DNA of 64,000 nt from Vulcanimicrobiota bacterium (GTDB lineage: Bacteria; Vulcanimicrobiota; Xenobia; Xenobiales; JADMJV01), in the NCBI GenBank assembly GCA_019637395.1, contig JAHBVR010000017.1, forward strand, positions 124,001-188,000, given 5' to 3'. Under the pieces are notes generated by a model. That model was given only the letters and a program-made list of their open reading frames with translations, did not search any database and was not told the origin of the DNA. This document shows, piece by piece, positions 15,173 to 48,941 of this stretch (its first letter is position 1; every line of letters starts with the position of its first letter). The translations under genes were made by a program, and so were the position numbers.

Positions 15173-15189
15173 GCGACAAATTCTGTCGC
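15173..15189. promoter_or_regulatory. Regulon operator, site 1 (M48 gene)
   Basis: GCGACAAATTCTGTCGC, a perfect GCGACA-N5-TGTCGC palindrome whose arms extend to GCGCGACA/TGTCGCGC. It is 64 bp upstream of the M48 start, between that gene and the nucleotidyltransferase stop at 15214. One of seven copies of the same 17-bp motif in this window. Confidence 0.7.
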
Positions 15190-22359: not shown

Positions 22360-23289
22360 TTAGACTCGCGTTACAGCCGGGTCGGCAAAGTGGGCCTTAC
22401 AACCGGCTACGGTGGCGGCGAGTTCTTGGGCCAGGTCTTCCAGACCCGGAAGGGACCAGTCTTTCGGACGTCTCGCTCGAATGGCCCCCTGAGTTTTCGA
22501 TTCGTCTACTTCGAGGTCGCAGGCCGTCCGGAAGCGCAGCCCGGATTCGAGCACTGCTCGGATTTTGTAGAGAGCCAGTATCACAAGAAAGCGGTTGGCT
22601 TCCTCGGGCAAGCCATAGCTACGCAAGAGATGCAGGTCGAGGTTAAAAAATGCGGTGATCTCGGCTGCTGAATACTCGGTTCGAGAAAAGGGGATATGAC
22701 CCGTTCCCTTTTCCGCTTCCCCTTTGGCACTGATGCGATCAAGCTTTACCCCTCCGCTGGCCACCAAAGCCGCGTCTTTGGCTTCTACGAAGCTTGAAAG
22801 TAAACGAGGTAGGCGCAGCCGTCCATCTTCGAGCTGGGAAAGGAAGACGCCGTGGAGAATGCAGTTGGGATCGAGCCGTAGCAACTCCCGGGCAAAGGCC
22901 ACCACGTTTACCGGGCTGGTCCGGCTATATTGAATCTTGTCGCCTACGCTTTTGCGCAGAGAATCTGGAAAGTAGCCGGAATTGAGCCTGTGCGATTCCT
23001 CGATGGAGGAAGTCTCGTGGCCCGGAGCTGTCGTGACGATATAGGGAATTCCCTGGGCAGCGGAAATCAATTCCCGCTTGGCCGAATCCCAAATCGTCGC
23101 TTCAAGGCGATTGGCCATCGATTGAGCCGATTCCACCAAGACAGCCTCGCCGCTGCCCGGGACCCGATAGCTGGCGGCGCCCAGGTCGGGAAATCCGGTT
23201 GGTTGAAACCGTGTTCCCTGAACAGGTTTGAGTGGAACGTCTAGCAGCAGTCGCGATTCAGTTTTCATCCAGGAAAGATCAATGGACAT
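22360..23289 (-). CDS. csb1: Csb1, Cas7 backbone subunit of type I-G Cascade
   Basis: 309 residues of the GSU0053/Csb1 family. The recognisable N-terminal block (LKPVQGTRFQPTGFPDLGAA, ESAQSMANRLE) is followed by SIEESHRLNSGYF and the core LLRLDPNCILHGVFLSQ. The C-terminal half contains LRSYGLPEEANRFLVILALYKIRAVLESGLRFRTACDL (positions about 223-260). Cas7 proteins polymerise along the crRNA spacer. Its ATG overlaps the cas8g stop by 11 bp, supporting translation from one mRNA. Length and order match other type I-G operons. Confidence 0.92.
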   Translation of the reverse strand: MSIDLSWMKTESRLLLDVPLKPVQGTRFQPTGFPDLGAASYRVPGSGEAVLVESAQSMANRLEATIWDSAKRELISAAQGIPYIVTTAPGHETSSIEESHRLNSGYFPDSLRKSVGDKIQYSRTSPVNVVAFARELLRLDPNCILHGVFLSQLEDGRLRLPRLLSSFVEAKDAALVASGGVKLDRISAKGEAEKGTGHIPFSRTEYSAAEITAFFNLDLHLLRSYGLPEEANRFLVILALYKIRAVLESGLRFRTACDLEVDESKTQGAIRARRPKDWSLPGLEDLAQELAATVAGCKAHFADPAVTRV

Positions 23290-25435: not shown

Positions 25436-27768
25436 ACGGCCACCACTTGTTTCTGTTGGCTCTCCGCCTTACTGGCTCGCACGTCAGCACTGCGAATGAG
25501 AGATTCTAAGAAGCCCAGTCGGAAAACGCCATAGTCTGGATTCTCCACCAGGCCATAGAGCGTTCTGACCCAACTCAGGCGGTGGCCGAGCCCCAAGACC
25601 TCCAGGTCCAGCGTGGTCTCGGCGATAGACAGGCCACCCCAGGTGACCGCTGGTAGCTGGTCCCCCGTCTTTACTCCCCGAATAGTGTGGCCTTTGGAAT
25701 GCTCGACTTGCAATTGTTCTTGTGGAATGGGGCGTACTGAGAATCGAATTTTCCCGTGGTGGACTGCTACCAGGAAAACAACCAGCGGATTGACCCCAGT
25801 CTGGAGTGCGGCCAGAGCGCTAGCGAATTCGTGTCTGAACCCTTTCCGGTAATGTTTTCCACCCATCTTACTCTTGCCTAAAAGCGGAAGCGGCTTCAAA
25901 TCGCCTGCCGGCAAACGATACATCGTCCCTTGGAAAACATCGTGTGCCTTGCCGTAGTCATGCCAAAGACAGGCCAGTAGCAGGGAGTCATTGGGTAGCT
26001 CCAGGGATTGCAGGCTGGCGAGCAATGCTTGCATTTCTCGGTGGACATTGAGGGTATGCTCTTCGAGCGTGAGGTCGTAGCCGCCCAGACGATCAGAATC
26101 GTAGCCTTTGGCGCGGTCAGGTTTAGCTACAGGCTGGACGTTACCTTTGTATTCCTTACCGAATCCGAGGTCGCAGTCGTAACCGCCGGAGCTGGCCTTC
26201 AGGAGGTACAGTTGACCGGCCTTCAAGCGATTACGGTCCACGGTTTCCCAGAGTTCTTCACCATAGTTCCAACGAAAGGCCTGACGGTCACCCCCCAGAA
26301 ACGTCCTCAAGTCCGAAAGCGGCACATTACAAAGTTCCTCGCGAAGCGGCAGGCCTTCGGTATTCGTCCAGCCTTCGTCGCAGCGCCTCCAGAAAACTTG
26401 GGCATCCCGAGTATTGGGCTCGCGAATGTAGCGGCTGATATCGATGTCCTCGCCGGCTAAATCGCTGGTTGTCTCAAAAAGCTCTCGTAGGTCCTTATGT
26501 CGTAACACCACGTCGCTGTCTGACTCATCGCCAAACCCATTGATCTGTCGTAGACAAGCTGGAGAAGCGTCAGGAATCGTGTGTATTATAGAGGCACAGG
26601 CCTCCAGTTGTTCTTGGTCATAGGGAAGTAGAGCATCTTTCAAGTCGATCCAGAAGGCTAAACCCCCTTCGGGCTCTTGACCGTCCCGATTGCATCGCCC
26701 CAACCTCTGGACCATCGAGGAAAAAGGACATAGTTCGCTGATCAGCAGCCTGGCCGACAGGTCGACTCCGGCCTCCACTACCTGGGTTGAAACAATCACA
26801 GCTCCACCAGAACCTGGATTCTTCTGAAGTTCGGTTAGAGCGGCTTCCTTGGCTGCCCGCTCGGGAGGACGGAACCTGGAGTGGAGGAGTAGCAGGGCGG
26901 GCGCTTCCGGTTTTCCTTTCAGGTGTTTCTGCAGAGCGCGATAGACCTCCACTGCTCTGTCTACCTGATTGACGATGATGAGACTCAGCGAGTCGGCGGA
27001 ATGATGCCCAAGGGCAAACTCTGCCACGCGCTTGGAATAGTCTTTTTTGGTCTCCTTGTTGAGCTCAAATGGTGCTTTTTGCAGGCTTTTGGGGGCGTTC
27101 ATTCGACGAGCCAATGAGGAATAGCTCAGATCTGCGGCGGACAATTCCTGAAGAGTTGAAGGTGCTGACCGATCAACGGTGGCCAGCCAATCCGGTTCTA
27201 GTGTGGCGCTCATCCACAGAGTCCGGGTGCTTCCGTAAACCTGTTCTCGTTCGCGGAAGGCCTGAAGCTGGACCGAAGTCGCTCGAGCCACGCCCATAAT
27301 TTGCACCTCGTCAAAAACCCACTGAGCATCGTTGTGCAAAAGCCCGAAGGGAACTGACCATCGATACCGGCTCATAGCGTAGCCCCGGTTCAAAGCGCGG
27401 GATAGCAGCATGTCCTGGGTTCCTACCAGGATGGCTGGCTCGGCCGGCGCCAGTTCCCACTCTTCCTCCAGCACGCCTCCCATCAGTTCGTAGACCTTGT
27501 AGCGCTCTGAAAGACCAAGTTTCTTGACCCAGCCCCGGGCATTGTCCACCGTCTGTTTGACCAGAACTCGCATTGGTAGACAAAAGACCAGACGAGTCGC
27601 CCCGGATTTTCTATGCTCGCGCGAGTAAAGCCAGGAGAGAATCACCGCAGCGGTCTTCCCCGCACCGGTAGGTACTCGCAGCACCTCAGGCCAATCCTCT
27701 GCAAGCCGTTGCTGGTAAGGATACGGCGGATGCCCGGTGGCAGACTGAAAAAATTGGGAATAGTTCAA
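25432..27768 (-). CDS. cas3: Cas3 helicase with C-terminal HD nuclease (type I-G)
   Basis: 778 residues from TTG 27768. The DExH helicase comes first: YPYQQRLAEDW, Walker A VPTGAGKT (about 32-39), DEVQ box in WVFDEVQIMG, motif III MSATL, and motif VI QRLGRCNRDG. The HD nuclease is C-terminal (about 570-760): EEHTLNVH, WHDYGKAHDVF and VAVHHGK. This helicase-then-HD order is typical of type I-G. An upstream frame to 27915 exists, but GGAGG at 27774-27778 sits 5 nt before the TTG, and the extra residues come from a perfect hairpin and a regulatory palindrome, so they are not coding. First gene of the effector operon. Confidence 0.92.
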   Translation of the reverse strand: MNYSQFFQSATGHPPYPYQQRLAEDWPEVLRVPTGAGKTAAVILSWLYSREHRKSGATRLVFCLPMRVLVKQTVDNARGWVKKLGLSERYKVYELMGGVLEEEWELAPAEPAILVGTQDMLLSRALNRGYAMSRYRWSVPFGLLHNDAQWVFDEVQIMGVARATSVQLQAFREREQVYGSTRTLWMSATLEPDWLATVDRSAPSTLQELSAADLSYSSLARRMNAPKSLQKAPFELNKETKKDYSKRVAEFALGHHSADSLSLIIVNQVDRAVEVYRALQKHLKGKPEAPALLLLHSRFRPPERAAKEAALTELQKNPGSGGAVIVSTQVVEAGVDLSARLLISELCPFSSMVQRLGRCNRDGQEPEGGLAFWIDLKDALLPYDQEQLEACASIIHTIPDASPACLRQINGFGDESDSDVVLRHKDLRELFETTSDLAGEDIDISRYIREPNTRDAQVFWRRCDEGWTNTEGLPLREELCNVPLSDLRTFLGGDRQAFRWNYGEELWETVDRNRLKAGQLYLLKASSGGYDCDLGFGKEYKGNVQPVAKPDRAKGYDSDRLGGYDLTLEEHTLNVHREMQALLASLQSLELPNDSLLLACLWHDYGKAHDVFQGTMYRLPAGDLKPLPLLGKSKMGGKHYRKGFRHEFASALAALQTGVNPLVVFLVAVHHGKIRFSVRPIPQEQLQVEHSKGHTIRGVKTGDQLPAVTWGGLSIAETTLDLEVLGLGHRLSWVRTLYGLVENPDYGVFRLGFLESLIRSADVRASKAESQQKQVVAV

Positions 27769-27773: not shown

Positions 27774-27778
27774 CCTCC
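27774..27778 (-). promoter_or_regulatory. Ribosome binding site that decides the cas3 start
   Basis: GGAGG read on the minus strand, 5 nt before TTG 27768. addA starts the same way (GGAGGAG then TTG 36525). It rules against the longer cas3 frame that begins at 27915. Confidence 0.75.
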
Positions 27779-27860
27779 GCTGAGCCTGCGATTTCGCACG
27801 GCTGAGAAGCTGTTCCTTCATCCACCGGAACAACTCTTGCAACCAATTTAGCCGCTGACC

Positions 27861-27877
27861 GCGACAAAAACGGTCGC
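27861..27877. promoter_or_regulatory. Regulon operator, site 7 (cas effector operon)
   Basis: GCGACAAAAACGGTCGC, matching GCGACA-N5-TGTCGC with one mismatch. It is 93 bp upstream of the cas3 TTG. It overlaps the base of the hairpin at 27876-27921 by two bases, and on the minus strand its centre is the T-run that follows that hairpin. Confidence 0.65.
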
Positions 27878-28427: not shown

Positions 28428-28679
28428 AATTGTTCCCTTCAAGAGGAGTTTGCTCTCAGGGTAGAACTAAAACGTTATAGAGGTTCAAGCCATACCTTGA
28501 ATCCGGGTCACGACTTTGCAGAGTCAGTGGCCCTTTTTGCTTTTAATATATTATCATGATTTGTCAAGCCAAGTGAAGCCAACCTATACACAGAACGTTG
28601 TTGGCTAAAAGAAGTCCAATTCCCTGTTACGGCTTTGTCTTCCGGAGGGCTTCCCAATGATGAGTCAGAACGAGGGCCA

Positions 28680-29756: not shown

Positions 29757-29758
29757 GA

Positions 29759-32054: not shown

Positions 32055-32519
32055 TCAGCGGTGGTGGCGGAAATTCCAGGGGGGGATGGGGCTGGGGTCG
32101 TGCCAGAGGCCGCGGTGTTGTCGTTGGGCTTCGCGTTGGAGGGGCATCCAGTAGGCGGGGTCGCGGCAGTAGCGGGTGAAGACCCAGGCGTGGCCGTTGC
32201 GGACCTGGAGGGCGTTGACGTTGGTGCCGTCGGGGAGGTAGAGCTGGGCCAGGGTGCGCTGGTAGCGGTCCTGGCCGAGGTCGAGCATCTGGAGCTGGCT
32301 GCCGGGGGGGATTAGTTGGCGCAGGGCCTGGCGGGAGCGGTTGCCGAAGGCCTGTTTCTTCTCGGGGGCGTCGATGCTGTCGAGGCGGACTCGCCGGACA
32401 CCCTCCGAGGTTTTCAGGTTGACGGTATCGCCGTCGGTGACGGAGAGGACTCGGGCGGGACACAGGGGTTGAGCCTGCAGGGAGGTGTGCAGGCAGCACA
32501 GGAACAGTAGCCGGCGCAT
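32055..32519 (-). CDS. Exported thermonuclease-fold (SNase) protein
   Basis: 154 residues with a signal peptide (MRRLLFLCCLHTSLQA). The SNase OB-fold carries the catalytic layout: VTDGDTVNL (Asp), VRLDSIDAPEK (Asp-Ala-Pro-Glu), DRYQRTLAQLYL (Arg) and NALQVRNGHAWVF. Staphylococcal nuclease cuts DNA and RNA with Ca. Its ATG is one base after the stop of the WYL gene (TGAAATG), so they are cotranscribed. An exported nuclease in an operon with AddAB and a CRISPR-linked regulator suggests scavenging or destruction of incoming DNA in the periplasm; that is inference. Confidence 0.85.
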   Translation of the reverse strand: MRRLLFLCCLHTSLQAQPLCPARVLSVTDGDTVNLKTSEGVRRVRLDSIDAPEKKQAFGNRSRQALRQLIPPGSQLQMLDLGQDRYQRTLAQLYLPDGTNVNALQVRNGHAWVFTRYCRDPAYWMPLQREAQRQHRGLWHDPSPIPPWNFRHHR

Positions 32520-32520
32520 T

Positions 32521-33456
32521 TCAGGCCAGCCAGGCGGCGGCACGGGCCCGCAGTTTTTCCAGGGCGATTTCCGGGCCGACCAGGCGGCAGTTGGTGAGGC
32601 CGAGGAGCCAGCCGATCAGGGCGTCCAGATCGCGGACCTCCAGGTGGAAATCGCTGTCCTGGAGTTGCTGGCTGGGGTGGACGGGGTTTTCCCGCAGCCA
32701 CAGAGCCAGGGCGGGAGATACCTGGCAGTGCACCCGGGTGGGCTGGCCGCCACCGAGATCCCATTTGTGAAAGTGGGGATCGGCTTTGCGTTCGCTGGTG
32801 GGGATTTCGAAGCGCTCGTTGAGCACCTGCAAGTCGTTGATGCGGTCGGGGCGGAAATTGCGGATTTCCTTTTTCTGGCAGTCCAGGCCGCGCACGTACC
32901 AGCGGTCCTGGAAGAACATCTGCCAGGGTTCGATCAGGCGCCATTGGGGCTCGAGGGCGTCGCGGTTGCGGTAGAAGATGCGCAGGCGGTATTTCTCCAC
33001 CAGCGCTTTGCTCAGCGATTCCATGGTGGCGGGAGAAACCGACCAGCCGAACTGAGCCGAGAGCATCTGGGGGAGTTCATTTTTGGCGCGCCGTTCCTGG
33101 CCGTTGATGACCGCATAGTTGAGCTTGTCCCAGCCTCTGCGGGCGATCGAGCCCAGGCCTGAGGCGTCGCCCAGGGCCACCGTCATGGTCAGGGCCAGCG
33201 TTTCCTCCAGATCGAGCAGCGAGGCCGCCTGGCGCTGGCCGGCCATCCAGTAGCGCGGAATTCTTTCGATGTCTCTACTCGACTCGATGGGATAGTTATA
33301 GGTTCGCAGTTGCTCCAGGTCGCGCTGAATGTTGCGCTTGTCGGTCTCGAGTTCGCCCGCCAGTTGGGCCACGGTGAGTCCGCTGGTGGTTTGCAAGCGC
33401 GAGAGCAAGCGCACCAGGCGTTGGAATTTGGATTGGGGGTCTTCTTTTTTCTTCAT
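32521..33456 (-). CDS. WYL-domain transcriptional regulator
   Basis: 311 residues. An N-terminal winged HTH (about 8-60, LTVAQLAGELETDKRNIQRDLEQL) is followed by a WYL ligand-sensing domain (about 150-215) with the eponymous RWYVRGLD (185-192) and RNFRPDRI, then a WCX-like C-terminus. WYL regulators such as BrxR/CapW repress defence systems, and others act in DNA-damage response; the domain may sense single-stranded nucleic acid. The gene is followed by SNase and preceded by addA (48-bp gap). A regulon palindrome sits 25 bp before its ATG, suggesting autoregulation. It is the obvious candidate to bind all seven palindromes. Confidence 0.9.
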   Translation of the reverse strand: MKKKEDPQSKFQRLVRLLSRLQTTSGLTVAQLAGELETDKRNIQRDLEQLRTYNYPIESSRDIERIPRYWMAGQRQAASLLDLEETLALTMTVALGDASGLGSIARRGWDKLNYAVINGQERRAKNELPQMLSAQFGWSVSPATMESLSKALVEKYRLRIFYRNRDALEPQWRLIEPWQMFFQDRWYVRGLDCQKKEIRNFRPDRINDLQVLNERFEIPTSERKADPHFHKWDLGGGQPTRVHCQVSPALALWLRENPVHPSQQLQDSDFHLEVRDLDALIGWLLGLTNCRLVGPEIALEKLRARAAAWLA

Positions 33457-33480
33457 GGTGTCTCCACAATACTGGTGAGT

Positions 33481-33497
33481 GCGACCATTTTTGTCGT
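33481..33497. promoter_or_regulatory. Regulon operator, site 3 (WYL gene)
   Basis: GCGACCATTTTTGTCGT, two mismatches from GCGACA-N5-TGTCGC. It lies between the addA stop and the WYL ATG, 25 bp upstream of the latter. It is the weakest of the seven sites, as often seen for an autoregulatory operator. Confidence 0.55.
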
Positions 33498-33504
33498 TTG
33501 ATTT

Positions 33505-36500
33505 TCAAAGCGTCCCATAGGCTCCTTCGCGCACGCCAAAGATGCCGGCGGAACGGACGGACTCGCCGGTGATGGTGTTCCAGCTGTGGGCGTATTCGCC
33601 GATTTGTTGGGAGTAAGCGACCAGCAGTTCGTGGAGGCGTTTGCGGTCGGTTTTGTAGTCGATCAGGTCCCAGCCGTCTGGCTGGCTCAGCAGCAGGTCG
33701 ATGATTCCGAGGATGAGGTGATCGTCCTGGCGGCGGCCAAAAGGGATTTCCACCAGCCGTTGGCGCGCCTGGCGTACGCAAGACCAGAATTCCGTGGCCT
33801 GCACGCGCTCGATGACATCGAGCGCCGCTTCCAGGAAGGGGGCGAGCTGGGGAGTTTCCAGGCTGAACCAGCGAGCCAACTGGTGCAATTGGTCGCGGCT
33901 GCAGTCCGGATGCCGCGCCGTATACTCGAGCAGGCGGTGAATCAGGTCGCCCCAGTCTCTGCCCTGCCCTTCGGAAGCATCGAGTGGCAGCGTGCTGCGG
34001 AAGCCGGAGGTTTTATTGTTGGTGGTCACCGCGCTGCGTTTCCAACTGGCCTGGCGGCAGTGTTCGCGAGCCGCCCTCCGGGTATCCCTGGCGGCCTGGA
34101 AATCGCCGGCTTCCATTTCCGGCCAGACCCGCCGGTATTTGTCGGAGGGCGGAGGGATTTGCAGCTCGGGGCATTCGGACAGAAAAGGCGCCAATGGGAG
34201 CCAGGGGCAGTTGGCGGCACCGTGGCTGCCGCTCCAGCCGCTCACCACCAGCATTTCCCGGGCTCTGGTGGTGGCTACGTAGAGCAGTCGCAGGCGCTCG
34301 GCGCTCAGGTAAGCCAGCTCCTGTTCCGCCAGTTGGTGCCAGCCGGGAGGGTGAGCCAGCAGCTTGCGGTAGCGCCGCAGGCAGAAGACGCCCGCACCCT
34401 CGGGAGTCAGGGCGTGATCTACTTGTAGGGGTAGCCCCTGAGCGGGAGCGGCCAGGAAAACCACTTTGGCCTCCAGTCCCTTGGCTTTGTGAAGATTCAT
34501 GATGCGCACCGCGTCGCGCTGTCCGCTGTGCAGGTTGCGCGGTTGAATTTGATCGGCTTCCAGCAATTCGACTACTCCTTGCAGCAGGGTGAGTCCGGCT
34601 TCTCCGCGTTCCGTCAGCTCGTCGGCAATCGCCTCCAGTTCGTCGTAACCGTCGAGCCAGGTCAGTCCCAGTTCGGCCATCACCAGATGGGCGGCGGCGC
34701 CGGGGGACAGGGAGCGGATTCTCGCCGAGAGATTCTCTAAAATCGCCAGCGAAGGCATCAGCTCTTCGGCGCCGGTTTCTCCGAGCCCCAGGCGGAGCTC
34801 TCCTCCCGCCTGGCGGTGCAGAAAAAGTTCCGTGTCGCTGTGGCCGAAGAACTTTCCGCGCAGCACGCTGGTCAGCGCTATCGAATCTCCCGGATGGGCC
34901 AGGCTGCGCAGCAGGGCCAGAAAGGAGCGCCCGTGGGCTTCCAGGGGTCTGGGCTCGCCGCTGGAGCGATAGGGGATTCCCAGCTCCTGTAAGGCCTTTT
35001 GATAGATGGCCAGTTCGCCGATGCGACTGGTGAGAATGAGAAAGTCTCCCGGGGTGTAGGGGCTGGCGGAAATGAAGGCGGCCAGTTGCCTGGCTTCGAG
35101 GGCGGGGAGCTCGGTGTGGCGCTGGCTGTCCAGAGTGAGCCGGTAGATGGCGGGGCTGGTGGCGCAGCCGTGGCCAGGGGTCAAGGGGGCGAAGGGAGCC
35201 TGCTCCTGACTGGCCCGAGCGGGGAGGAGTTCGGCGAAGACACGATTCACCCAGGCGCAGATGGAGGCATTGGATCGGAACGAGGTCGTCAATTCCAGCA
35301 CTGCGCCCATCGATTGGCGCACCCGGTAATACATTCGCATATCCGCGCGGCGGAAGCGATAGATGGATTGTTTGGGGTCGCCGACCAGAAACAAGCTGGC
35401 CGGCCGTGGCCGTCCCTCCAGCCAGTTTGATAGAGAGCTGGAGTCAGCCGCCAGCCTCAGGAAGATCTCTGCCTGCAGTGGATCGGTATCCTGGAATTCG
35501 TCGACGTAGAGATGCTGGAAGCGTTCTTGCAGTCGCTCGACCACCTCGGGATGATTTCTCAGCAAGCGCGCGCATTTTCGCAGGAGGTCTTGAAAATTGC
35601 TCAGGCCCAGCTGGCGACGTTCTTCCTGGCAAGCCTGGCGAACGCGCAACAGGAAAGGCAGGCATTGAGCGTAGAGGTGGGCGCGCCAGCCGGCCAGGGC
35701 GGGGGCGACGACGGTGGAGCGAAATTCGTCGACCAGGGGTGTCACTGCCTCCAGAGCTGCATTCTGCAGTGCGCGCTTCTCTCCCCAGTAGCGCTTGACG
35801 GGTTTGGGGTTGGTTTCCCAGTCCGAAAGCAGTTTGATCAGGTCCCGGGCGCTTTCTCGAGAGCTCAGGCGGACTTGCTGCAGCAAGCGTTGCCCTAAAA
35901 GCAGCAGCTTGCAGGTCGGCTCCCCTGCGCAGGCGGGAAGTTGCGGTTGCAAAAGCGCGCTGAAATTTTCCACCGCGCGCCAGATGGTTTCCGAGCAGGG
36001 GCGTTCCGCCGGCGGCTGCAGGTAGTCCAGGTCGCTCTGCTCGGAGAGCCCGTAGAGGGCGGGCAGAAGCTCCAGCCAGCTGGCGCCGTACTCGGCCAGC
36101 AGCCGAACCAGGCGGCGCCCCTCGGCGTCCTCCAGGTGACTGCGCAGCACCCGGCGCTGCAGGGTTTCATCTTCTCGTTGCTCGATTTCTCGGAAAGCCG
36201 GAGAGATGCCCGACTGGACCGGGTATTCTCGCAGCAACTGGCCGCAGAAAGAATGGACGGTGCCGACAAACATTTCGGGGAAGCGGGCCAGAGCGGGGGA
36301 AGCTGACTTTTCCAGTTCGAGACGGAGCCGGGCGCTCAGTTCGGCAGCGGCTTTGCGCGTGAACGTCACGGCCGCGATTCGCTCGATGGGGTAGCGCCCC
36401 CGGGTTACTCCGGCCACGAGGCGCGCGACCAGGCAGTGAGTCTTTCCCGATCCGGCCGAGGCTTCGACCAGAAAATTGCTCTCCAAATCGGTGACGATTC

Positions 36501-36525
36501 GGCGTCTGGCCTCGGCGTCGTTCAA
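33505..36525 (-). CDS. addA: AddA-like helicase-nuclease
   Basis: 1006 residues. The UvrD-type SF1A helicase has Walker A ASAGSGKT (22-29), AAVTFTRKAAAEL (motif Ia), LYVDEFQDTDPLQ (motif II), FLVGDPKQSIYRFR (motif III), TSFRSN (motif IV) and LLYVATTRAREM (motif VI). A C-terminal PD-(D/E)XK nuclease follows: GDLIHRLLEY (His), LGIIDLLL (Asp) and DLIDYKTDRK (Asp-x-Lys). AddAB resects double-strand ends and, like RecBCD, can supply fragments for spacer capture. TTG 36525 is used, after GGAGGAG; it overlaps the addB stop (TTGA). Confidence 0.88.
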   Translation of the reverse strand: MNDAEARRRIVTDLESNFLVEASAGSGKTHCLVARLVAGVTRGRYPIERIAAVTFTRKAAAELSARLRLELEKSASPALARFPEMFVGTVHSFCGQLLREYPVQSGISPAFREIEQREDETLQRRVLRSHLEDAEGRRLVRLLAEYGASWLELLPALYGLSEQSDLDYLQPPAERPCSETIWRAVENFSALLQPQLPACAGEPTCKLLLLGQRLLQQVRLSSRESARDLIKLLSDWETNPKPVKRYWGEKRALQNAALEAVTPLVDEFRSTVVAPALAGWRAHLYAQCLPFLLRVRQACQEERRQLGLSNFQDLLRKCARLLRNHPEVVERLQERFQHLYVDEFQDTDPLQAEIFLRLAADSSSLSNWLEGRPRPASLFLVGDPKQSIYRFRRADMRMYYRVRQSMGAVLELTTSFRSNASICAWVNRVFAELLPARASQEQAPFAPLTPGHGCATSPAIYRLTLDSQRHTELPALEARQLAAFISASPYTPGDFLILTSRIGELAIYQKALQELGIPYRSSGEPRPLEAHGRSFLALLRSLAHPGDSIALTSVLRGKFFGHSDTELFLHRQAGGELRLGLGETGAEELMPSLAILENLSARIRSLSPGAAAHLVMAELGLTWLDGYDELEAIADELTERGEAGLTLLQGVVELLEADQIQPRNLHSGQRDAVRIMNLHKAKGLEAKVVFLAAPAQGLPLQVDHALTPEGAGVFCLRRYRKLLAHPPGWHQLAEQELAYLSAERLRLLYVATTRAREMLVVSGWSGSHGAANCPWLPLAPFLSECPELQIPPPSDKYRRVWPEMEAGDFQAARDTRRAAREHCRQASWKRSAVTTNNKTSGFRSTLPLDASEGQGRDWGDLIHRLLEYTARHPDCSRDQLHQLARWFSLETPQLAPFLEAALDVIERVQATEFWSCVRQARQRLVEIPFGRRQDDHLILGIIDLLLSQPDGWDLIDYKTDRKRLHELLVAYSQQIGEYAHSWNTITGESVRSAGIFGVREGAYGTL

Positions 36526-39368
36526 AACTCCTCCAACAGTTGAAGGCGGCTCTTCAGTATGGCGTTGCCGGGATTCTCCAGCTTGCGCAGGGAGCGCGAG
36601 TCGGTATGTCCTTCGCAGATCGATTGGTAATCGCAGAAGGTGCAGTCTTTTTCGCGGCTTTCCGTCTGGAGAAAGGCTCCGCTTTGCAGCGGCGCCAGCA
36701 CTCCTCGCATCACTCTCTGTAAAGCGGCGCGGTCCGGCCTGTCAAAGTGGACCCAGCGTTGGGCGGCGTTCGGCCGTACGAAGTAGTACGAACTCTGCAC
36801 CACCGGTCCGACCAGCTTTTCCACCACCATTGCGTAGAGGGCGTGTTGCAGCAGTCGGCCCCGGTCGTAAATCGTGTTGGGGGAGATACGCAGGCTCCTG
36901 CCGGTTTTGTAGTCGACCACTCCATAGCCGCCCGGTAGCCGGTCCACGCGGTCGATGCGTCCGGACAGGGCGAAGGAGGTGCCATCCGGCCAGATGAGCT
37001 CTACCGGCTCCGAGGAGGCGAGTGGCTCCAGCGGTTCCTCGCCCATCCCGAAGGGCAATTCCAGAGCCACCGGTGAGCGCTCGGGATGTTCCAGTTCCAG
37101 GCTGAGGAAATATTCTAGATCTTTGAGGAGCTCTTCCGCCTCACTGGCCTCCACGGCCGCCGAAAGAGCGGGCCTGAGCGGTCGCAATTGATCGAGACGT
37201 TGCTTCAGCAGTTCAGCCAGGAGCTGGCGGTCCTCCATTTCGAGCGGCTTTCTACCTTGCCCGCGCAACTGGCGATGGTAATCCGCCAGAATATCGTGAA
37301 TGACGATTCCCCGCAGAGATGGATCCAGCCATACGTCCAGGTCCGGCAAACCGGGGGCGCCGCGCGGTAAATCAAGGCAGACTTCCAAAAAAATCTGAAA
37401 AGGACAACCGGCCAGAGAGGCCAGCTGGCTGACCGAGACCGGCAGCCGGGTCTGTCTCGGGTCAAAGAGGCCGGCCGCCTCCGGCACGAAACCATCGAAG
37501 GAGGTGAAATTGTCGCTGGCTCGCGCTGCTTCAGCGGCTGTCCCCTGGACCAGGCGCGGGTAGAATTTCTGGAGAGCGTGAGGGGTCAGTTTGGGCTGAA
37601 GAGCGCTTCTGGCATGGGCGCCAAGCCAATCCTGGAGCTCCTTGAAATTGGTGAGAGCGGGGTGATGCCGGCGCGCGCATTCGAAGAAGATCCAGGAGGG
37701 AATCTGCTCACTTTCACCGCCTCGGTCGCGCAGCGAATAGGAAAGCGTCAGTTGCCCGGCGGCCGTTTCCAGGCGCTCGTCCAATTGAAAGCGGATGAAT
37801 TCCGGCAGATCCCGGGAAAGCCTGAGAGCGGGGTGCAGAGCAGCCCGTTCCTGGTCGTCGAGAACGCAGTTTTCGGCCTGCGTGGTCAGCCAGCGACCTT
37901 CTTCGAGGCCGATGAGAAAGAGGTGCTGCCGCCCGGACAGGCCTAAATTGGCGGGCCGGGTTACATGCAGGTGGCCGGGGCGGGGGCGGCTGGAATTGCA
38001 GATCAGGCTATGCAGTTGCTGGCGCACTTGATGAATGGCCCGGTCCAACGGCCACCAGGCGCCGGGCAGGGTCTTCAAGTCCTCGAGCGCCGTCAGAATG
38101 GCCTGGCAGGTCACTGCTTCGCCGGCGTTGCGGGAGGCGAAATCCCGTTTCAAGAGTTTCTGCAGTCCGCTCAGCCAGGCCTTGACCGGAACCTCGCCTT
38201 GCGGGTTGGGGGCGGGCCACTCTCGCCACCAGCTTTCCAGGCCGGCCGCCAGAGCCAGGCAGTGTTCCGCCGATTCCTGTTCGCCCCGTTGCCGGTAGAC
38301 TTCTTGCAGGGTTTGCAGTCGCTGCGCATAGCTCTCGCGACCCCAGTCGATACGGGCCGACTGGAGCAGGCGGGCGGAGGTATAACGGTTGGGCGGCAGG
38401 CGGATGAGATCAGACAGAAGCAGCTCGCGTAGATGGTAGGCGGTGTGGCCGTGTTCCACCCAGGTAAGCAGGCCGTTTAAGGCCTGCCCGGCGCGGTTGC
38501 ACCGGGCAGGCAGGCCAGCCTCGAAAGTGTAGGGGAAATCCGCCGCCTGGAGCCGTTCCTGAATGAGGGGAGCCTCTTCCGGTAGCGCGCAGATCTCGAC
38601 CTGGTCCAGCGGGATCGCCCCCTCTTCGAGGCGCCGCAGGATTTCGTCGATTTCCTGGGGGCGCCGCGGCGCGCAGAAAAATTGGGGAGCTTTTCCTTTT
38701 GCGGCGATAGGTTTGCGCGGCGGCCAGAAGGCGGGAGGAGTGCGGTCGGTCGCTTCCGGGAGCCAGTGAAGGCCCGGCAGGCGCTCAATCAGGGCCTGTT
38801 CTAAAGGGGCCCAGCAGCAATAGGGGTAGGGGAGGATGATGTCTTGCTCTTCCACTTGTGGGTAGCTCAGTTCGGCGGCCAGAATGTCGGCCCGGTCCGC
38901 CCATTTTTGGCTGGCAAGGTGTTCTTCGTAGGCCAGAAACAGGCGAGTCAATTCGTTGATTTTGGAGCTTCTGGGAAGAATGTCCAGGTGCCGGGCCCGG
39001 AGTCCGGCCAGGCGGAATTCGCTCAGGGTCTCCCAGAGAATTTGGGCCATTCCCGGTTGCAGGATAAGTGGACGAAAGTGGCTTTCGCCTTCGTCGGGAA
39101 GGTCGACCAACAGATTTTGCAGCAGGCCGGGGCCCAGGGCGTCCGGGCATGGGTAGATTCCGCGCGACAGGAGGCCGGGCGCACTGGCTTCCAGGGCCAG
39201 TTGGAAGGGGGTGGTGAAACGTAAATTCACCCAATTGCAACCCTCGTGAAGCAGCCTTTCTCCCAGGGTCCAGCCGATGGCGGGCGAGGGCAGGATGATC
39301 CATTTGGCGGTCAACGGCTGCTCCCGGCACAGGCGTTTCAGTTGCTCTACGAATGGGTCAGCCACCAC
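36522..39368 (-). CDS. addB: AddB-like nuclease subunit with iron-sulfur cysteines
   Basis: 948 residues. The C-terminal nuclease domain contains LAGCPFQIFLEVC, GIVIHDILADYH, LSGRIDRVDRLPGGYGVVDYKTG and the triplet C909-x2-C912-x5-C918 (DCTFCDYQSIC). The spacing matches the 4Fe-4S staple of AddB. The N-terminal half is helicase-like but lacks a Walker A; LPSPAIGWTLGERLL stands where AddB has G-x-GKT, so this subunit is probably not an ATPase. It is the first gene of addB-addA-WYL-SNase and is divergent from cas4-1, sharing a 125-bp region with two regulon palindromes. Confidence 0.85.
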   Translation of the reverse strand: MVADPFVEQLKRLCREQPLTAKWIILPSPAIGWTLGERLLHEGCNWVNLRFTTPFQLALEASAPGLLSRGIYPCPDALGPGLLQNLLVDLPDEGESHFRPLILQPGMAQILWETLSEFRLAGLRARHLDILPRSSKINELTRLFLAYEEHLASQKWADRADILAAELSYPQVEEQDIILPYPYCCWAPLEQALIERLPGLHWLPEATDRTPPAFWPPRKPIAAKGKAPQFFCAPRRPQEIDEILRRLEEGAIPLDQVEICALPEEAPLIQERLQAADFPYTFEAGLPARCNRAGQALNGLLTWVEHGHTAYHLRELLLSDLIRLPPNRYTSARLLQSARIDWGRESYAQRLQTLQEVYRQRGEQESAEHCLALAAGLESWWREWPAPNPQGEVPVKAWLSGLQKLLKRDFASRNAGEAVTCQAILTALEDLKTLPGAWWPLDRAIHQVRQQLHSLICNSSRPRPGHLHVTRPANLGLSGRQHLFLIGLEEGRWLTTQAENCVLDDQERAALHPALRLSRDLPEFIRFQLDERLETAAGQLTLSYSLRDRGGESEQIPSWIFFECARRHHPALTNFKELQDWLGAHARSALQPKLTPHALQKFYPRLVQGTAAEAARASDNFTSFDGFVPEAAGLFDPRQTRLPVSVSQLASLAGCPFQIFLEVCLDLPRGAPGLPDLDVWLDPSLRGIVIHDILADYHRQLRGQGRKPLEMEDRQLLAELLKQRLDQLRPLRPALSAAVEASEAEELLKDLEYFLSLELEHPERSPVALELPFGMGEEPLEPLASSEPVELIWPDGTSFALSGRIDRVDRLPGGYGVVDYKTGRSLRISPNTIYDRGRLLQHALYAMVVEKLVGPVVQSSYYFVRPNAAQRWVHFDRPDRAALQRVMRGVLAPLQSGAFLQTESREKDCTFCDYQSICEGHTDSRSLRKLENPGNAILKSRLQLLEEF

Positions 39369-39410
39369 CGGAAATTCGCAAGCGAGAATTGGCGTCCTGC
39401 CATGTCTGGC

Positions 39411-39427
39411 GCGACAATCTTTGTCGC
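39411..39427. promoter_or_regulatory. Regulon operator, site 4 (addB / cas4-1)
   Basis: GCGACAATCTTTGTCGC, a perfect match whose arms extend to GCGCGACAA/TTGTCGCGC. It lies 43 bp upstream of addB and 67 bp upstream of cas4-1 in their shared promoter region. Confidence 0.7.
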
Positions 39428-39448
39428 GCTGAAGGATAGACTGAGTTC

Positions 39449-39465
39449 GCGACCAGTTTTGTCGC
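39449..39465. promoter_or_regulatory. Regulon operator, site 5 (addB / cas4-1)
   Basis: GCGACCAGTTTTGTCGC, one mismatch. It is 38 bp from site 4 start to start, and 29 bp upstream of the cas4-1 GTG. Two copies in one divergent promoter region allow cooperative binding or separate control of the two directions. Confidence 0.65.
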
Positions 39466-39493
39466 GCAAATCTCTTTTGGATGGGAGGGACCT

Positions 39494-41149
39494 GTGATCC
39501 AACTTGAACTTGAATCCATTCCGGCGCGGATCGTCAATCAGTACACTTATTGTCCGCGCCTGGCCTATCTGGAATGGGTCCAGAAGGAATGGGCCGATAA
39601 TCTTTATACCCAAGAAGGCTCTTGGGCCCACCGGGTGGTCGATGCGGGCAACGGAAAGATTCCCGACTCCGAAGAGCCGGTTCGCACCCGCTCTCTGGAA
39701 CTGGCTGCTCCGCGCCTGGGCCTGGTCGGTAAATTGGACATGGTGGAGCTGGGTCGAGGCGAGGCGGAACCGGTTGAGTATAAGCGCGGGCGGCGGCCGA
39801 AAAGCGGGGAAGTGGCTGAAGACTGGGATCTTATGCAGCTGGCGGCGCAGGCCCTGCTCTTGCGCGAGAACGGCTGGAAATGTGAGCGAGGGTTCTTCTA
39901 TTTCTGTGAAAGCCGGGAAAAAGTTTCCGTAGAATTGGACGACCAGTTGCTGGCCCGGGTGGAGGAAACCCTGGCCGAGATGCGGACTCGTTTTGAGCAG
40001 CCCCTCGCCCCGGAGCCGCTGGTGGCCAGCCAGAAGTGCGGCGGATGTTCGCTGGTGGGAATTTGCCTTCCGGATGAAACCTGGCGCTTAAAGCAGGGAG
40101 CTAAGCCTGATAAGACCCGCCGCTTGCTGGCTCCCAAAGACGACGCTCTGCCCCTTTATCTGACCACCAACGGGCTGAGCGTGGGAATCAACGGGGAGCT
40201 GCTGGAGATTCGCGAGAAAGGCAAAGCGATCGACCACAAGCGCTTTCTGGATATTTCCCATCTCTGCTTGATGGGTAATATTCAGGTCTCCACCCAGGCG
40301 GTGCGGCACCTGTCGGCGCAGGGCATTCCGATTTGCTATTTTAGCTATGGAGGCTGGTTCAGCGCGATGACTCAGGGGATGAGCCATCGCAACGTGGAGC
40401 TGCGGCGGGCGCAATACCGGGCCGCCTTTGACCCGGTCGCCTGTCTTGGATTGGCCCGGCGCTTTGTTTCCACCAAGATTCGCAATGGGCGCACTTTTCT
40501 GCGGCGGAATAATCGCAGCTTTCCCGACTCCGGCCTGAAAGAGCTGAAACGGCTGGCCCTGGCGGCCGAAAGGGCGGAAAATTTGCCCACTTTGTTGGGA
40601 TTGGAAGGAATGGCGGCGCGCATTTACTTTCAGGCTCTGCCGGGAGCGGTGAAGAACCGTGCTTTTTTGGAAGGGGGAGGGTTCGACAGCGGAGCCCGCA
40701 ATCGCCGCCCTCCCAAGGATCCGATGAACGCGCTACTGTCGCTGGCCTACTCTCTGCTGACCAAGGAGATGAGCGTGATCAGCCACGCCATTGGCTTCGA
40801 TCCTTTTCAGGGCTTCTATCACCAGTCTCGTTACGGCAAGCCGGCGCTGGCGCTGGACGTGATGGAGGAATTCCGCGTACTGATCGCCGACTCGGTAGTG
40901 CTGAGCGTGATTAACAACCAGATGGTCACGCTCTCGGATTTCGACTGTTACCAGCACGGGGTGGTGCTGAACCAGGCCGGACGCCGGGCGCTGATCGGAG
41001 CCTTCGAGAAGCGGATGGAGGAAAAGGTCACCCATCCCTGGTTTGATTATCGGCTCACCTATCGGCGCATCCTCTATGTGCAACTCCGCCTGCTGGCCCG
41101 TTACCTGTGCGGAGAGATCGCCGAGTTCCCGCCCTTTGTGACCCGATGA
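39494..41149 (+). CDS. cas4-cas1: Cas4-Cas1 fusion (spacer acquisition)
   Basis: 551 residues. The Cas4 part (about 1-200) has four cysteines, C20 and C182-x2-C185-x5-C191, for an iron-sulfur cluster, and nuclease residues in LVGKLDMVEL and PVEYKRGR. The Cas1 part (about 215-551) has Glu371 in LGLEGMAARIYF, His443 in FYHQSRYGKP and Asp455 in LALDVMEEF. Such fusions are typical of type I-G; Cas4 trims and selects PAM-containing prespacers and Cas1 integrates them. GTG 39494 follows GGGAGG by 5 nt. It overlaps cas2 by 4 bp (ATGA). Confidence 0.95.
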   Translation: MIQLELESIPARIVNQYTYCPRLAYLEWVQKEWADNLYTQEGSWAHRVVDAGNGKIPDSEEPVRTRSLELAAPRLGLVGKLDMVELGRGEAEPVEYKRGRRPKSGEVAEDWDLMQLAAQALLLRENGWKCERGFFYFCESREKVSVELDDQLLARVEETLAEMRTRFEQPLAPEPLVASQKCGGCSLVGICLPDETWRLKQGAKPDKTRRLLAPKDDALPLYLTTNGLSVGINGELLEIREKGKAIDHKRFLDISHLCLMGNIQVSTQAVRHLSAQGIPICYFSYGGWFSAMTQGMSHRNVELRRAQYRAAFDPVACLGLARRFVSTKIRNGRTFLRRNNRSFPDSGLKELKRLALAAERAENLPTLLGLEGMAARIYFQALPGAVKNRAFLEGGGFDSGARNRRPPKDPMNALLSLAYSLLTKEMSVISHAIGFDPFQGFYHQSRYGKPALALDVMEEFRVLIADSVVLSVINNQMVTLSDFDCYQHGVVLNQAGRRALIGAFEKRMEEKVTHPWFDYRLTYRRILYVQLRLLARYLCGEIAEFPPFVTR

Positions 41150-41433
41150 GACGCGATTTCATCGTGACTTACGATGTTTCGAACGATAAGCGGTTGCGCC
41201 TGGTCTTCAAGGCCATGCTGGGTTTCGGGGAACATATACAGTTCTCGGTGTTCCGCTGCGCCCTGAGCAAAATGGAGCGGCAGAAGATGATCGAAAAACT
41301 GACCGGACTGATCCACCAGCGGGAAGATCAGGTGCTCATTATCGAACTAGGCACCCTGCCCGAACGCAGATCGCGCATCCGGCCTCTCGGCAGGGCCTAC
41401 CGGCCCTGTGATCCGGGAGCCCAGGTGTTCTGA
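41146..41433 (+). CDS. cas2: Cas2
   Basis: 95 residues beginning MRRDFIVTYDVSNDKRLRLV, with the ferredoxin-like fold and the conserved Asp of YDVSNDKR. It continues FGEHIQFSVFRCALS and ends after EDQVLIIELGTLPERR and YRPCDPGAQVF. Cas2 dimers bridge two Cas1 dimers for spacer integration. ATG 41146 overlaps the cas4-1 stop. It is the last gene before the terminator, leader and array. Confidence 0.95.
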   Translation: MRRDFIVTYDVSNDKRLRLVFKAMLGFGEHIQFSVFRCALSKMERQKMIEKLTGLIHQREDQVLIIELGTLPERRSRIRPLGRAYRPCDPGAQVF

Positions 41434-41521: not shown

Positions 41522-41643
41522 AGGGGTTGCGAGCGGGCTTCTGAGGGGGATTCAAGTTTCGGGGGGTTGGTGGGGGAGGTGAAGTGACCCGCTCGCAGAA
41601 TGCCCTCAGGATGCCGGAGCCACCGTGCTTTGCGAGGGGGGCG
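41522..41643 (+). promoter_or_regulatory. CRISPR leader with interleaved inverted repeats
   Basis: 122 bp between the terminator and the first repeat; it is G-rich, unlike AT-rich leaders. Two inverted repeats interleave: TGCGAGCGGG (41528-41537) with CCCGCTCGCA (41588-41597), and CTGAGGG (41541-41547) with CCCTCAG (41603-41609). The partners are 60 and 62 bp apart. Leader polarity is inferred from adjacency to cas2, the degenerate repeats at the far end and the ATTGAAGT/C repeat 3' end. No clear -10/-35 is seen. Confidence 0.6.
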
Positions 41644-44600
41644 CCGATCCGCGGTTTCTGACCGCGGCCCAATTGAAGTGACACTGATTCTCATCTTCGT
41701 CTCCCAATGGACCCCAGCCGATCCGCGGTTTCTGACCGCGGCCCAATTGAAGTAGGATATGGACCTTTTCGATCAGCGGGTCGCCGTCGGGCCGATCCGC
41801 GGTTTCTGACCGCGGCCCAATTGAAGTGGAGAGCTGGCTTTGCTATGCGGCCAATATTTCGCACCCGATCCGCGGTTTCTGACCGCGGCCCAATTGAAGT
41901 CCGAGACACCGCCCAAAGAATCGTTGACCTCCTGCGCCGATCCGCGGTTTCTGACCGCGGCCCAATTGAAGTCTCCGCGGATAGGGGAGTGGTGATGGCC
42001 AACTTGTGGCCGATCCGCGGTTTCTGACCGCGGCCCAATTGAAGTTTCTTCGGTCAACGCCCTGCCGGTCGGGGTGACCAGCCGATCCGCGGTTTCTGAC
42101 CGCGGCCCAATTGAAGTCAAGACGCCATCAAGATCGCGGGAAAGATGTGCCCGACCGATCCGCGGTTTCTGACCGCGGCCCAATTGAAGTTCAAGACCTT
42201 CGGTTACCAGGCGATTTCTGACGAAGCCGATCCGCGGTTTCTGACCGCGGCCCAATTGAAGTCAGTCTCGACCTGGCGCCCGGCCGGCCACCAGGTGGGC
42301 GTCCGATCCGCGGTTTCTGACCGCGGCCCAATTGAAGTCGAAGGCGCCTGCCCAGGCCCGGCGGTTGCGCCGGTTGCCGATCCGCGGTTTCTGACCGCGG
42401 CCCAATTGAAGTCTGGCAGTTGTGTCCGGGGCGCTGACGGGGTTGTTACCCGATCCGCGGTTTCTGACCGCGGCCCAATTGAAGTCCGAGCCTTTGCGTC
42501 GAAGGAGTAGCCTCCGGCGGTCTCCGATCCGCGGTTTCTGACCGCGGCCCAATTGAAGTGACGTATCCAACAAGCCGTACGATGAGGTGCGCCAGCCGAT
42601 CCGCGGTTTCTGACCGCGGCCCAATTGAAGTAAGGTCATTCACGGGCAGAAGTATACGACCAGTGCCGCCGATCCGCGGTTTCTGACCGCGGCCCAATTG
42701 AAGTAACGCTCAATACCAGCAGCGCCCAGTGCCCAAAGAAGCCGATCCGCGGTTTCTGACCGCGGCCCAATTGAAGTACCTCAACCGTGACATGCTTGCC
42801 GGCGTTGAAGCTGCCGATCCGCGGTTTCTGACCGCGGCCCAATTGAAGTAAAAACTCTTCCTCGGTCCACGATTGCGCCTGGAAGTCCGATCCGCGGTTT
42901 CTGACCGCGGCCCAATTGAAGTAATAACTGCCCCACAGTTTCCACATATATGAGGGAACCGATCCGCGGTTTCTGACCGCGGCCCAATTGAAGTTTGCGC
43001 GCAAAACCAACCTGCCCCAGAAGACGATCACCGATCCGCGGTTTCTGACCGCGGCCCAATTGAAGTCACCATTCCCGCCCATTTCTCCTCACTCAGATGG
43101 ATACCGATCCGCGGTTTCTGACCGCGGCCCAATTGAAGTTTCCAGGGACTGCCGAAGCGGGGGAAGATACTCGGCCAGCCGATCCGCGGTTTCTGACCGC
43201 GGCCCAATTGAAGTTAGCTCATCTGAGCCCGGGCCTCGGTGCGCCCGTTACCGATCCGCGGTTTCTGACCGCGGCCCAATTGAAGTAAGGAGATCAAAAA
43301 GCTCTACGGCGCGGCCTGGGATGCCGATCCGCGGTTTCTGACCGCGGCCCAATTGAAGTAGAGCTATTTTATTGCTGACGTGGCTGGGAAGGCGACCGAT
43401 CCGCGGTTTCTGACCGCGGCCCAATTGAAGTATCGAAATGTTTGTTCCGGCTTTAATTCTCGCGGCACCGATCCGCGGTTTCTGACCGCGGCCCAATTGA
43501 AGTTTGCTTTGCTTCCAGGTTGGGGCTCTGTGCTTTCCCGCCGATCCGCGGTTTCTGACCGCGGCCCAATTGAAGTATCAAGGGTGCCGCTCTCTGTCTC
43601 GCTGAAGCCGACCGCCGATCCGCGGTTTCTGACCGCGGCCCAATTGAAGTCTCATGGAGGACAGGAGGTTTGCAATGCCGTCGAGCCCCGATCCGCGGTT
43701 TCTGACCGCGGCCCAATTGAAGTTAGCCCTTTGGCAGAACCTCCCTCCAGGCCTTGCCTGCCGATCCGCGGTTTCTGACCGCGGCCCAATTGAAGTGAAA
43801 AAGCACAGCGTATCAAGTATGGCCTCGACCAGCCGATCCGCGGTTTCTGACCGCGGCCCAATTGAAGTACCGTTTTTGTGTCGAAGGAGTAGCCTCCGGC
43901 GGTCTCCCGATCCGCGGTTTCTGACCGCGGCCCAATTGAAGTACGGAGTCTGATAACAGTCTTGGATTTGCTTGGTCCGACCGATCCGCGGTTTCTGACC
44001 GCGGCCCAATTGAAGTAAACGGACAGTTCCCCGACAGGCCGAGGGTCCAAGCCGATCCGCGGTTTCTGACCGCGGCCCAATTGAAGTCACAAATACACAA
44101 GCGTAACAGCCCCTGCATCACTAACCGATCCGCGGTTTCTGACCGCGGCCCAATTGAAGTTAGTATGGCTTTTTTCGTTTTTACCGATCAAAAACCCCGA
44201 TCCGCGGTTTCTGACCGCGGCCCAATTGAAGTCCTATAGAGGGGGGTTATGATCTTTTTCGATTCCGCTTCCGATCCGCGGTTTCTGACCGCGGCCCAAT
44301 TGAAGTGACTGGATGGGAGGGAGATACCGATCCACCTGCGAGGCCGATCCGCGGTTTCTGACCGCGGCCCAATTGAAGTTAATTCGAATTACAGCGAACA
44401 CCAAGATAAGCAATTCAGTCCAGCGCGGCGGAGGACCTTCCGATCCGCGGTTTCTGACCGCGGCCCAATTGAAGCATCACCATGAAGCAGAGTTGCACGT
44501 CGGCTTGGTCCCGCCGATCCGCGGTTTCTGACCGCGGCCCAATTGAAGCAACGTCGCTGACGGGAGCGGACTCCGGCATTGCCTCACCGATCCGCGGTTT

Positions 44601-44915
44601 CTGACCGCGGCCCAATTGAAGCGCCAATTGATCGTGCAGTTGGCTGCCCCCACCGAGGCCGATCCGCGGTTTCTGACCGCGGCCCAATTGAAGCCGCGTG
44701 ACGCCCACCGAGGCCACCTTCGGCAGCAAACTCCGATCCGCACTTTCTGAGTGCGGCCCAATTGAAGCCGGGAGACCCTGGCTATACGTCCATCACCCTG
44801 GTAGGCCGATCCGCACTTTCTGAGTGCGGCCCAATTGAAGCCGCTGTGTCAAATCCGCTATGGGTCCGGCCGTACGCCGCCGATCCGCACTTTCTGAGTG
44901 CGGCCTAATTGAAGC
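41644..44915 (+). CRISPR. Type I-G CRISPR array, 45 repeats and 44 spacers
   Basis: The repeat is 36 bp: CCGATCCGCGGTTTCTGA then CCGCGGCCCAATTGAAGT. It folds as a 7-bp stem CCGCGGT/ACCGCGG with loop TTCTG. Repeats 1-38 (41644 to 44379) end in T. Repeats 39-45 (from 44440) end in C. The last three (44733, 44806, 44880) carry stem CCGCACT/AGTGCGG with both arms changed together, and repeat 45 has one more C-to-T change. Spacers are 35-40 nt, except spacer 38 (44380-44439), which is 60 nt. Two spacers (42486-42523, 43869-43906) share 26 identical bases. The distal end is the older end. Confidence 0.98.
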
Positions 44916-48924: not shown

Positions 48925-48941
48925 GCGACAATTTCTGTCGC
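48925..48941. promoter_or_regulatory. Regulon operator, site 6 (EcsC-like gene)
   Basis: GCGACAATTTCTGTCGC, a perfect match to GCGACA-N5-TGTCGC, 76 bp upstream of the EcsC-like ATG. The remaining 258 bp up to the divergent TPR gene (49200) show no gene or other clear signal. Confidence 0.7.

What the first reader, a model, noticed from the sequence alone, without database searches (positions are those of the whole stretch)
32055..41433. AddAB-WYL-thermonuclease operon back-to-back with cas4-1/cas2: a DNA-capture neighbourhood
addB-addA-WYL-SNase are read away from cas4-1-cas2 across a shared 125-bp promoter with two identical-type operators. RecBCD and AddAB are known to feed spacer acquisition, and Cas4 selects prespacers. 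Physical and regulatory linkage suggests a dedicated AddAB for prespacer supply, plus an exported nuclease for incoming DNA.
Basis: partly seen in the sequence, partly recalled or inferred. Interest (0 to 1): 0.72.

Follow-up and report, generated by a model that had tools for sequence, protein, structure and literature searches.

The report
DNA-damage-type switch controls CRISPR and AddAB
In an uncultured bacterium (Eremiobacterota), the genes that capture pieces of viral DNA for CRISPR memory share a promoter with a DNA-end-chewing machine, AddAB, and both carry the signature of a switch that in other bacteria is turned on by single-stranded DNA, so immune memory may be made when broken DNA appears.

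Summary
addB-addA-WYL-SNase is read away from a type I-G cas4/1-cas2 across 125 bp with two palindromes. In two of three other I-G-bearing genomes of the genus the order is addB-addA-WYL-cas4/1-cas2; none of 79 I-G loci from other phyla has AddAB beside it. The palindrome, GCGACA-N5-TGTCGC, is not private to this promoter. It also precedes cas3 (two genomes), the WYL gene and others of its clade, SNase homologues elsewhere, and addB of G002, G004 and G006. In 25 of 35 copies a -10 hexamer starts exactly 9-10 bp after it (1 expected, P about 1e-31), and 5 of the genome's 9 such promoters lie in this window. Core (CGAC-N7-GTCG) and position over the -35 match Caulobacter DriD, a WYL activator switched on by ssDNA; DriD and PafBC are also the nearest structural relatives of the window's WYL protein. 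Best reading: a DriD/PafBC-like, ssDNA- or damage-inducible regulon, separate from SOS, that switches on CRISPR adaptation, interference, AddAB and an exported nuclease together. That AddAB supplies prespacers is plausible but unshown. It is the only AddAB found in this genome; G002 and G004 have a second, unlinked pair.

The parts
39411..39427 (+). Operator GCGACAATCTTTGTCGC; with the -10 TAGACT at 39437-39442 it reads towards cas4/1
39437..39442 (+). -10 hexamer TAGACT, 9 bp after the operator, rightward (cas4/1) promoter
39449..39465 (-). Operator GCGACCAGTTTTGTCGC; with the -10 TATCCT at 39433-39438 it reads towards addB. The two promoters interlock, each start point falling in or near the other's operator
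39433..39438 (-). -10 hexamer TATCCT, 10 bp after the operator, leftward (addB) promoter
36522..39368 (-). AddB-type protein, 948 aa, PD-(D/E)XK nuclease; four Cys of a presumed Fe-S site (C655, C909, C912, C918) and nuclease D806, D819, K821 invariant in five copies
33505..36525 (-). AddA-type protein, 1006 aa, UvrD helicase plus C-terminal PD-(D/E)XK nuclease; Walker A G25/G27/K28/T29 and nuclease D943, D956, K958 invariant in five copies
33481..33497 (-). Operator (2 mismatches) with -10 TATTGT at 33466-33471, directly upstream of the WYL gene: predicted autoregulation
32521..33456 (-). WYL regulator (HTH_11, WYL, WCX), DriD/PafBC-like
32055..32543 (-). Staphylococcal-nuclease-type thermonuclease with an N-terminal signal-peptide-like stretch
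39494..41149 (+). Cas4g/Cas1g fusion of type I-G
41107..41433 (+). Cas2
41643..44915 (+). CRISPR array, about 45 repeats
27861..27877 (-). Operator (1 mismatch) with -10 TAAATT at 27845-27850, promoter of the cas3-cas8g-cas7g-cas5g operon
25432..27765 (-). Cas3g; true start near 27765 because TIGR02621 begins at residue 51 of the ORF 25432-27915
23279..25435 (-). Cas8g/Csx17
22360..23289 (-). Cas7g/Csb1
20955..22355 (-). Cas5g/Csb2
48925..48941 (-). Operator (exact) with -10 TATCCT at 48910-48915, upstream of an EcsC-family gene 48136-48873
15173..15189 (-). Operator (exact) with -10 TATACT at 15158-15163, upstream of an M48-family protease gene 13961-15121

Best explanation
The locus is part of a regulon driven by a DriD/PafBC-like WYL transcription activator. 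A palindrome GCGACA-N5-TGTCGC takes the place of the -35 element, 9-10 bp before the -10. The WYL protein (clade A in the window; clade B beside cas4/1 in G002, G003 and G004), bound to ssDNA from broken or invading DNA, would occupy it and recruit RNA polymerase. In the window it would switch on together cas4/1-cas2 (capture), cas3-cas8-cas7-cas5 (interference), addBA (end resection), its own gene and, in the same operon, an exported SNase. AddAB degrading DNA from free ends would yield both the inducing ssDNA and fragments for Cas4/1-Cas2, a positive loop. Shown: gene content, operator and -10 geometry, recurrence in relatives, family of the regulator. Inferred: that this WYL protein binds the site, that it activates, that ssDNA is the ligand, and that AddAB products become spacers.
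For: Palindrome to -10 spacing: 25 of 35 unique sites (<=1 mismatch) have TAnnnT at offset 9 or 10 against 0.96 expected, P 1e-31. The genome-wide pattern operator+N9-10+TAnnnT gives 9, 8 and 6 hits in G000, G002 and G004 against 0, 1 and 0 for the reversed control, and 5 of the 9 in G000 lie in this window, P 5e-9. The core CGAC-N7-GTCG and the fixed place over the -35 match DriD, consensus ATACGAC(X)7GTCGTAT (PMC12340889). The WYL profile hits PafBC (7.5e-26) and DriD (1e-6) along the HTH-WYL stretch but BrxR and CapW only in the WYL domain. Foldseek ranks DriD first and PafBC second. PafB residues shown to bind ssDNA (R181, Y196, R208; PMC11804915) line up with R173, Y187 and an R/K in this family (mapping by eye). 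All four clade-A WYL genes have a site (0-2 mismatches) just upstream, chance about 0.4% each. Operators recur upstream of cas3 in G002 (exact), of addB in G002, G004 and G006, of cas4/1 in G002 (variants in G003, G004), and of SNase homologues in G002 and G004. lexA promoters lack it.
Against: No expression or binding data. G004 (7 exact sites) and G001 (2) have no clade-A WYL gene in the assembly, so the binder could be clade B or another WYL protein. G003 has clade A (62%) but no exact site. Some WYL proteins of defence loci repress (BrxR, Sll7009; PMC9122601). The AlphaFold model of the WYL protein is weak (pLDDT 64, pTM 0.34). No selective link of AddAB to type I-G exists outside this genus.
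Confidence: 0.62

Rival explanations
1. Dedicated prespacer supplier: this AddAB exists to make substrates for Cas4/1-Cas2, and shared regulation serves that alone.
For: addBA-WYL-cas4/1-cas2 is one operon in G002 and G004, which have a second AddAB pair elsewhere. AddAB assists acquisition in III-A and RecBCD in some type I systems (PMC9048733), and AddAB associates statistically with several CRISPR subtypes (PMC6452273).
Against: The operator also drives interference genes and non-CRISPR genes. In the window's genome no other AddAB was found. G003 has WYL-cas4/1-cas2 without adjacent AddAB.
Confidence: 0.4
2. AddAB here is an ordinary double-strand-break repair enzyme within a damage regulon; its closeness to cas genes is incidental to defence-island clustering.
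For: It is the only AddAB found in G000. The DriD regulon holds repair genes such as recJ. G006 addB carries the operator although no cas gene is seen on its short contig.
Against: AddB of this kind is patchy: no full match in G001 or G005, and related copies sit in BREX operons in G002 and G003. Three of four I-G loci of the genus carry it.
Confidence: 0.3
3. AddAB is an anti-phage effector of its own (exonuclease on phage ends), used by BREX and CRISPR loci alike.
For: The nearest relatives (49-52%) of the window's AddAB follow PglZ-BrxD-BrxHI in BREX-like operons.
Against: BREX-linked copies show no operator and form a separate branch from the CRISPR-linked ones, root unresolved.
Confidence: 0.25
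4. The palindrome is a repressor operator over the -35, as for BrxR, CapW or Sll7009; infection relieves repression.
For: A site over the -35 would also block polymerase. WYL repressors guard defence loci (PMC9122601).
Against: Sequence and fold place this WYL nearer the activators DriD and PafBC. Exact spacing to the -10 with the palindrome in place of a -35 is what an activator that replaces sigma contacts would need.
Confidence: 0.25

Closest known systems
DriD regulon of Caulobacter (WYL activator, SOS-independent damage response)
   Same: CGAC-N7-GTCG core, site over the -35 at fixed distance from the -10, WYL/WCX regulator, nuclease targets (PMC12340889)
   Different: Outer bases differ (GCGACA...TGTCGC against ATACGAC...GTCGTAT); targets here include CRISPR, AddAB and other defence genes
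PafBC of mycobacteria
   Same: WYL activator switched on by ssDNA, best sequence match in the PDB
   Different: PafBC is a heterodimer acting at a -26 motif; here the site is a palindrome, implying a homodimer
WYL regulators of defence loci (BrxR, CapW, Sll7009)
   Same: WYL gene next to defence genes
   Different: Those described act as repressors of their locus; here a multi-locus activator pattern
Type I-G CRISPR-Cas
   Same: cas3-cas8g-cas7g-cas5g, cas4/1 fusion, cas2, array
   Different: AddAB and a WYL gene adjoin cas4/1; control by the palindrome
AddAB helicase-nuclease
   Same: AddA helicase-nuclease and AddB nuclease with Fe-S Cys
   Different: Far below NCBIfam equivalog cut-offs; patchy, defence-linked; no Walker A motif seen in AddB

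Membership tests
Type I-G CRISPR-Cas | Cas4g/Cas1g fusion above cut-off | tested here: met
   NF049935, 704.7 bits, cut-off 560
Type I-G CRISPR-Cas | Cas3g, Cas8g, Cas7g and Csb2 above cut-off | tested here: met
AddAB | AddA with UvrD helicase and PD-(D/E)XK; AddB with PD-(D/E)XK; adjacent genes | tested here: met
AddAB | NCBIfam AddA and AddB equivalog cut-offs | tested here: not met
   AddA 227 against 861 bits, AddB 52 against 904 bits: AddAB-like, not the curated equivalog
AddAB | Resection and Chi recognition activity | not testable with these tools
   needs biochemistry
DriD/PafBC-type WYL activators | HTH + WYL + WCX architecture | tested here: met
DriD/PafBC-type WYL activators | CGAC-N7-GTCG site at a fixed distance upstream of the -10 | tested here: met
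DriD/PafBC-type WYL activators | ssDNA-groove Arg and Tyr of the WYL domain | tested here: met
   R173, Y187 invariant in A4; R/K at the R208 place
DriD/PafBC-type WYL activators | ssDNA-dependent activation of transcription | not testable with these tools
   needs in vitro transcription
LexA/SOS regulon | Same box upstream of lexA | tested here: not met
   no GCGACA palindrome in the lexA promoters of six genomes
BREX (for the AddAB relatives in L055 and L056) | PglZ, BrxD and BrxHI upstream of addBA | tested here: met
   PglX methyltransferase not looked for

The most novel reading that the evidence does not exclude
An immune-dedicated, SOS-independent damage response: an ssDNA-sensing WYL activator turns on CRISPR spacer capture, CRISPR interference and a CRISPR-linked AddAB together, so that free DNA ends both trigger and feed immunisation.
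Probability: 0.35. Interest if true: 0.87.

Novelty: new variant of a known kind. Interest (0 to 1): 0.7.

Why it matters
How cells time spacer acquisition, and why free DNA ends are preferred, is an open question. Here regulation, end resection and integration are written into one locus with an operator that predicts inducibility by ssDNA or DNA damage, testable in a reporter strain. It also extends the DriD/PafBC type of damage response to CRISPR adaptation, and shows that AddAB-like enzymes sit with defence systems (CRISPR I-G and BREX). In the open-access library searched I noticed no report of either link, judging by listed titles and abstract openings.

Tried and rejected
A first scan with a 6-bp spacer (GCGACA-N6-TGTCGC) gave 23 hits against 21 in the control and was the wrong spacing. 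SOS/LexA box: rejected, lexA promoters lack it. Private operator of this promoter only: rejected. Independent capture of AddAB by two I-G loci: not decided, the trees leave the root open and one origin is not excluded. Variant GTGACA-N5-TGTCAC as G003's own regulon: 3 hits, inconclusive. AddB in viral contigs: none; plasmids: one distant Salinibacter AddAB with a WYL gene 3.3 kb upstream but no DriD-like promoter. The AlphaFold model of the WYL protein is too weak for structural detail.
Full report
What is there. Nearby are the type I-G effector operon cas3-cas8g-cas7g-cas5g and an array of about 45 repeats. The host is Candidatus Eremiobacterota: one close relative's contig carries that name.

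Is AddAB a housekeeping gene here? Searching 15 genomes of the order with this AddB gave matches in five only; two well-covered relatives (G001, G005) have none. In G000 the UvrD-family proteins are PcrA, a UvrD-PD-(D/E)XK fusion, this AddA, a 749-aa protein and weak hits, so no RecBCD and no second AddAB was found. G001, G002, G004 and G005 have a divergent AddAB-like pair (about 25-30% identity over the matched parts) in other surroundings without a predicted promoter of this kind. G002 and G004 therefore have two.

Is the linkage conserved? In G002 and G004 the order is addB-addA-WYL-cas4/1-cas2, all in one direction. In G003 a WYL gene precedes cas4/1 without addAB. Among 149 Eremiobacterota genomes 17 have an I-G cas4/1 above cut-off, and no AddAB match was found in the loci fetched outside the genus, several of which are cut short by contig ends. 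Of 79 I-G loci from other phyla, none has AddAB; several have a WYL gene near cas3. So the AddAB link is a trait of this genus, while a WYL neighbour of I-G is widespread. The window's AddAB is 49-52% identical to copies that follow PglZ-BrxD-BrxHI in BREX-like operons of G003 and G002, and 40-42% to the CRISPR-linked copies of G002 and G004; the trees do not fix the root.

The operator. The two palindromes fit GCGACA-N5-TGTCGC. In the 64-kb window 10 sites with at most two mismatches occur against 3.2 expected. Genome-wide there are six exact sites in G000, nine in G002, seven in G004, two in G001 and none in G003 or G005; the reversed control gives 0, 0, 0, 0, 1 and 4 in the same order. The flanks were not chosen by promoter content: in 25 of 35 unique sites a TAnnnT hexamer begins exactly 9 or 10 bp after the palindrome, 0.96 expected, P about 1e-31. 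Operator and -10 together give nine promoters in G000, five of them in this window (P 5e-9). In the shared 125 bp the left palindrome serves cas4/1 (-10 TAGACT, 39437-39442) and the right one addB (-10 TATCCT, 39433-39438). The two promoters interlock and each would start in or near the other's operator, so they may compete.

What else carries it. cas3 in the window and, exact, in G002; addB in G002, G004 and G006, the last of another family with -10 TAGACT at offset 10; cas4/1 in G002, with variants GTGAC-N7-GTCAC in G003 and a half-kept site in G004; all four clade-A WYL genes, including one beside another CRISPR type in G002; SNase homologues of G002 and G004, 61-64% identical, away from CRISPR; M78 peptidases, a NurA-like gene, a TerB gene resembling part of Shango, DEAD/ResIII helicases, and an AAA-subtilase pair. 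This looks like a defence and DNA-processing regulon.

The regulator. The WYL protein has HTH_11, WYL and WCX domains. Its profile finds PafBC (7.5e-26) and DriD (1e-6) along the HTH-WYL stretch, BrxR and CapW only in the WYL part; Foldseek ranks DriD first and PafBC second, though the model is weak. DriD binds ATACGAC-N7-GTCGTAT over the -35 at a fixed distance from the -10 and is switched on by ssDNA; its own promoter is bidirectional (PMC12340889). PafBC is likewise switched on by ssDNA, and the Arg and Tyr residues needed are kept here (PMC11804915). Both clades of WYL share R41, R45, D46 and L47 in the presumed recognition helix, so both may read the same core. The binder is inferred, not shown: G004 and G001 have sites without a clade-A gene. 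The lexA promoters of six genomes lack the palindrome.

Function. AddA and AddB keep helicase, nuclease and Fe-S residues, so they are probably active. RecBCD is needed for acquisition in some type I systems and AddAB enhances it in S. epidermidis III-A (PMC9048733). The SNase begins with a hydrophobic stretch and AxA-like site by inspection, so export is likely. I conclude that AddAB and CRISPR are co-regulated parts of an ssDNA- or damage-inducible WYL regulon (0.62). That AddAB's main job is to feed Cas4/1-Cas2 I put at 0.4.

Noticed in passing
L055:2867-14973 (G003) and L056:351-12541 (G002): AddB-AddA directly follow PglZ-BrxD-BrxHI, a BREX-like operon with an AddAB tail; a decayed AddAB remnant is in L060. 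No report of this was noticed in the open-access library.
   Followed up: partly
window 44715-44915: The three distal repeats of the array carry compensatory changes in the repeat stem (GCGGTTTCTGACCGC becomes GCACTTTCTGAGTGC).
   Followed up: no
window 42498-42530 and 43880-43912: Two spacers share about 28 nt but differ at their 5' end, as if taken from related protospacers.
   Followed up: no
window 28635-30442: AAA ATPase plus DUF4276 pair, strong match to the candidate defence system HEC-01, between the two cas operons.
   Followed up: partly
G000 C2, L041:7365-10313: UvrD helicase fused to a PD-(D/E)XK-like region (982 aa); similar UvrD hits of about 1000 aa occur in G001, G002 and G003: a possible housekeeping end-processing enzyme.
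   Followed up: partly
L040:4159-7680: AAA ATPase plus subtilase pair preceded by the operator and -10.
   Followed up: partly
L188:1437-10079 (G002 C137): A clade-A WYL gene with its own operator heads a different CRISPR-Cas locus.
   Followed up: partly
L311 (Salinibacter ruber plasmid pSR116): A WYL gene lies 3.3 kb upstream of an AddAB-like pair on a plasmid.
   Followed up: partly
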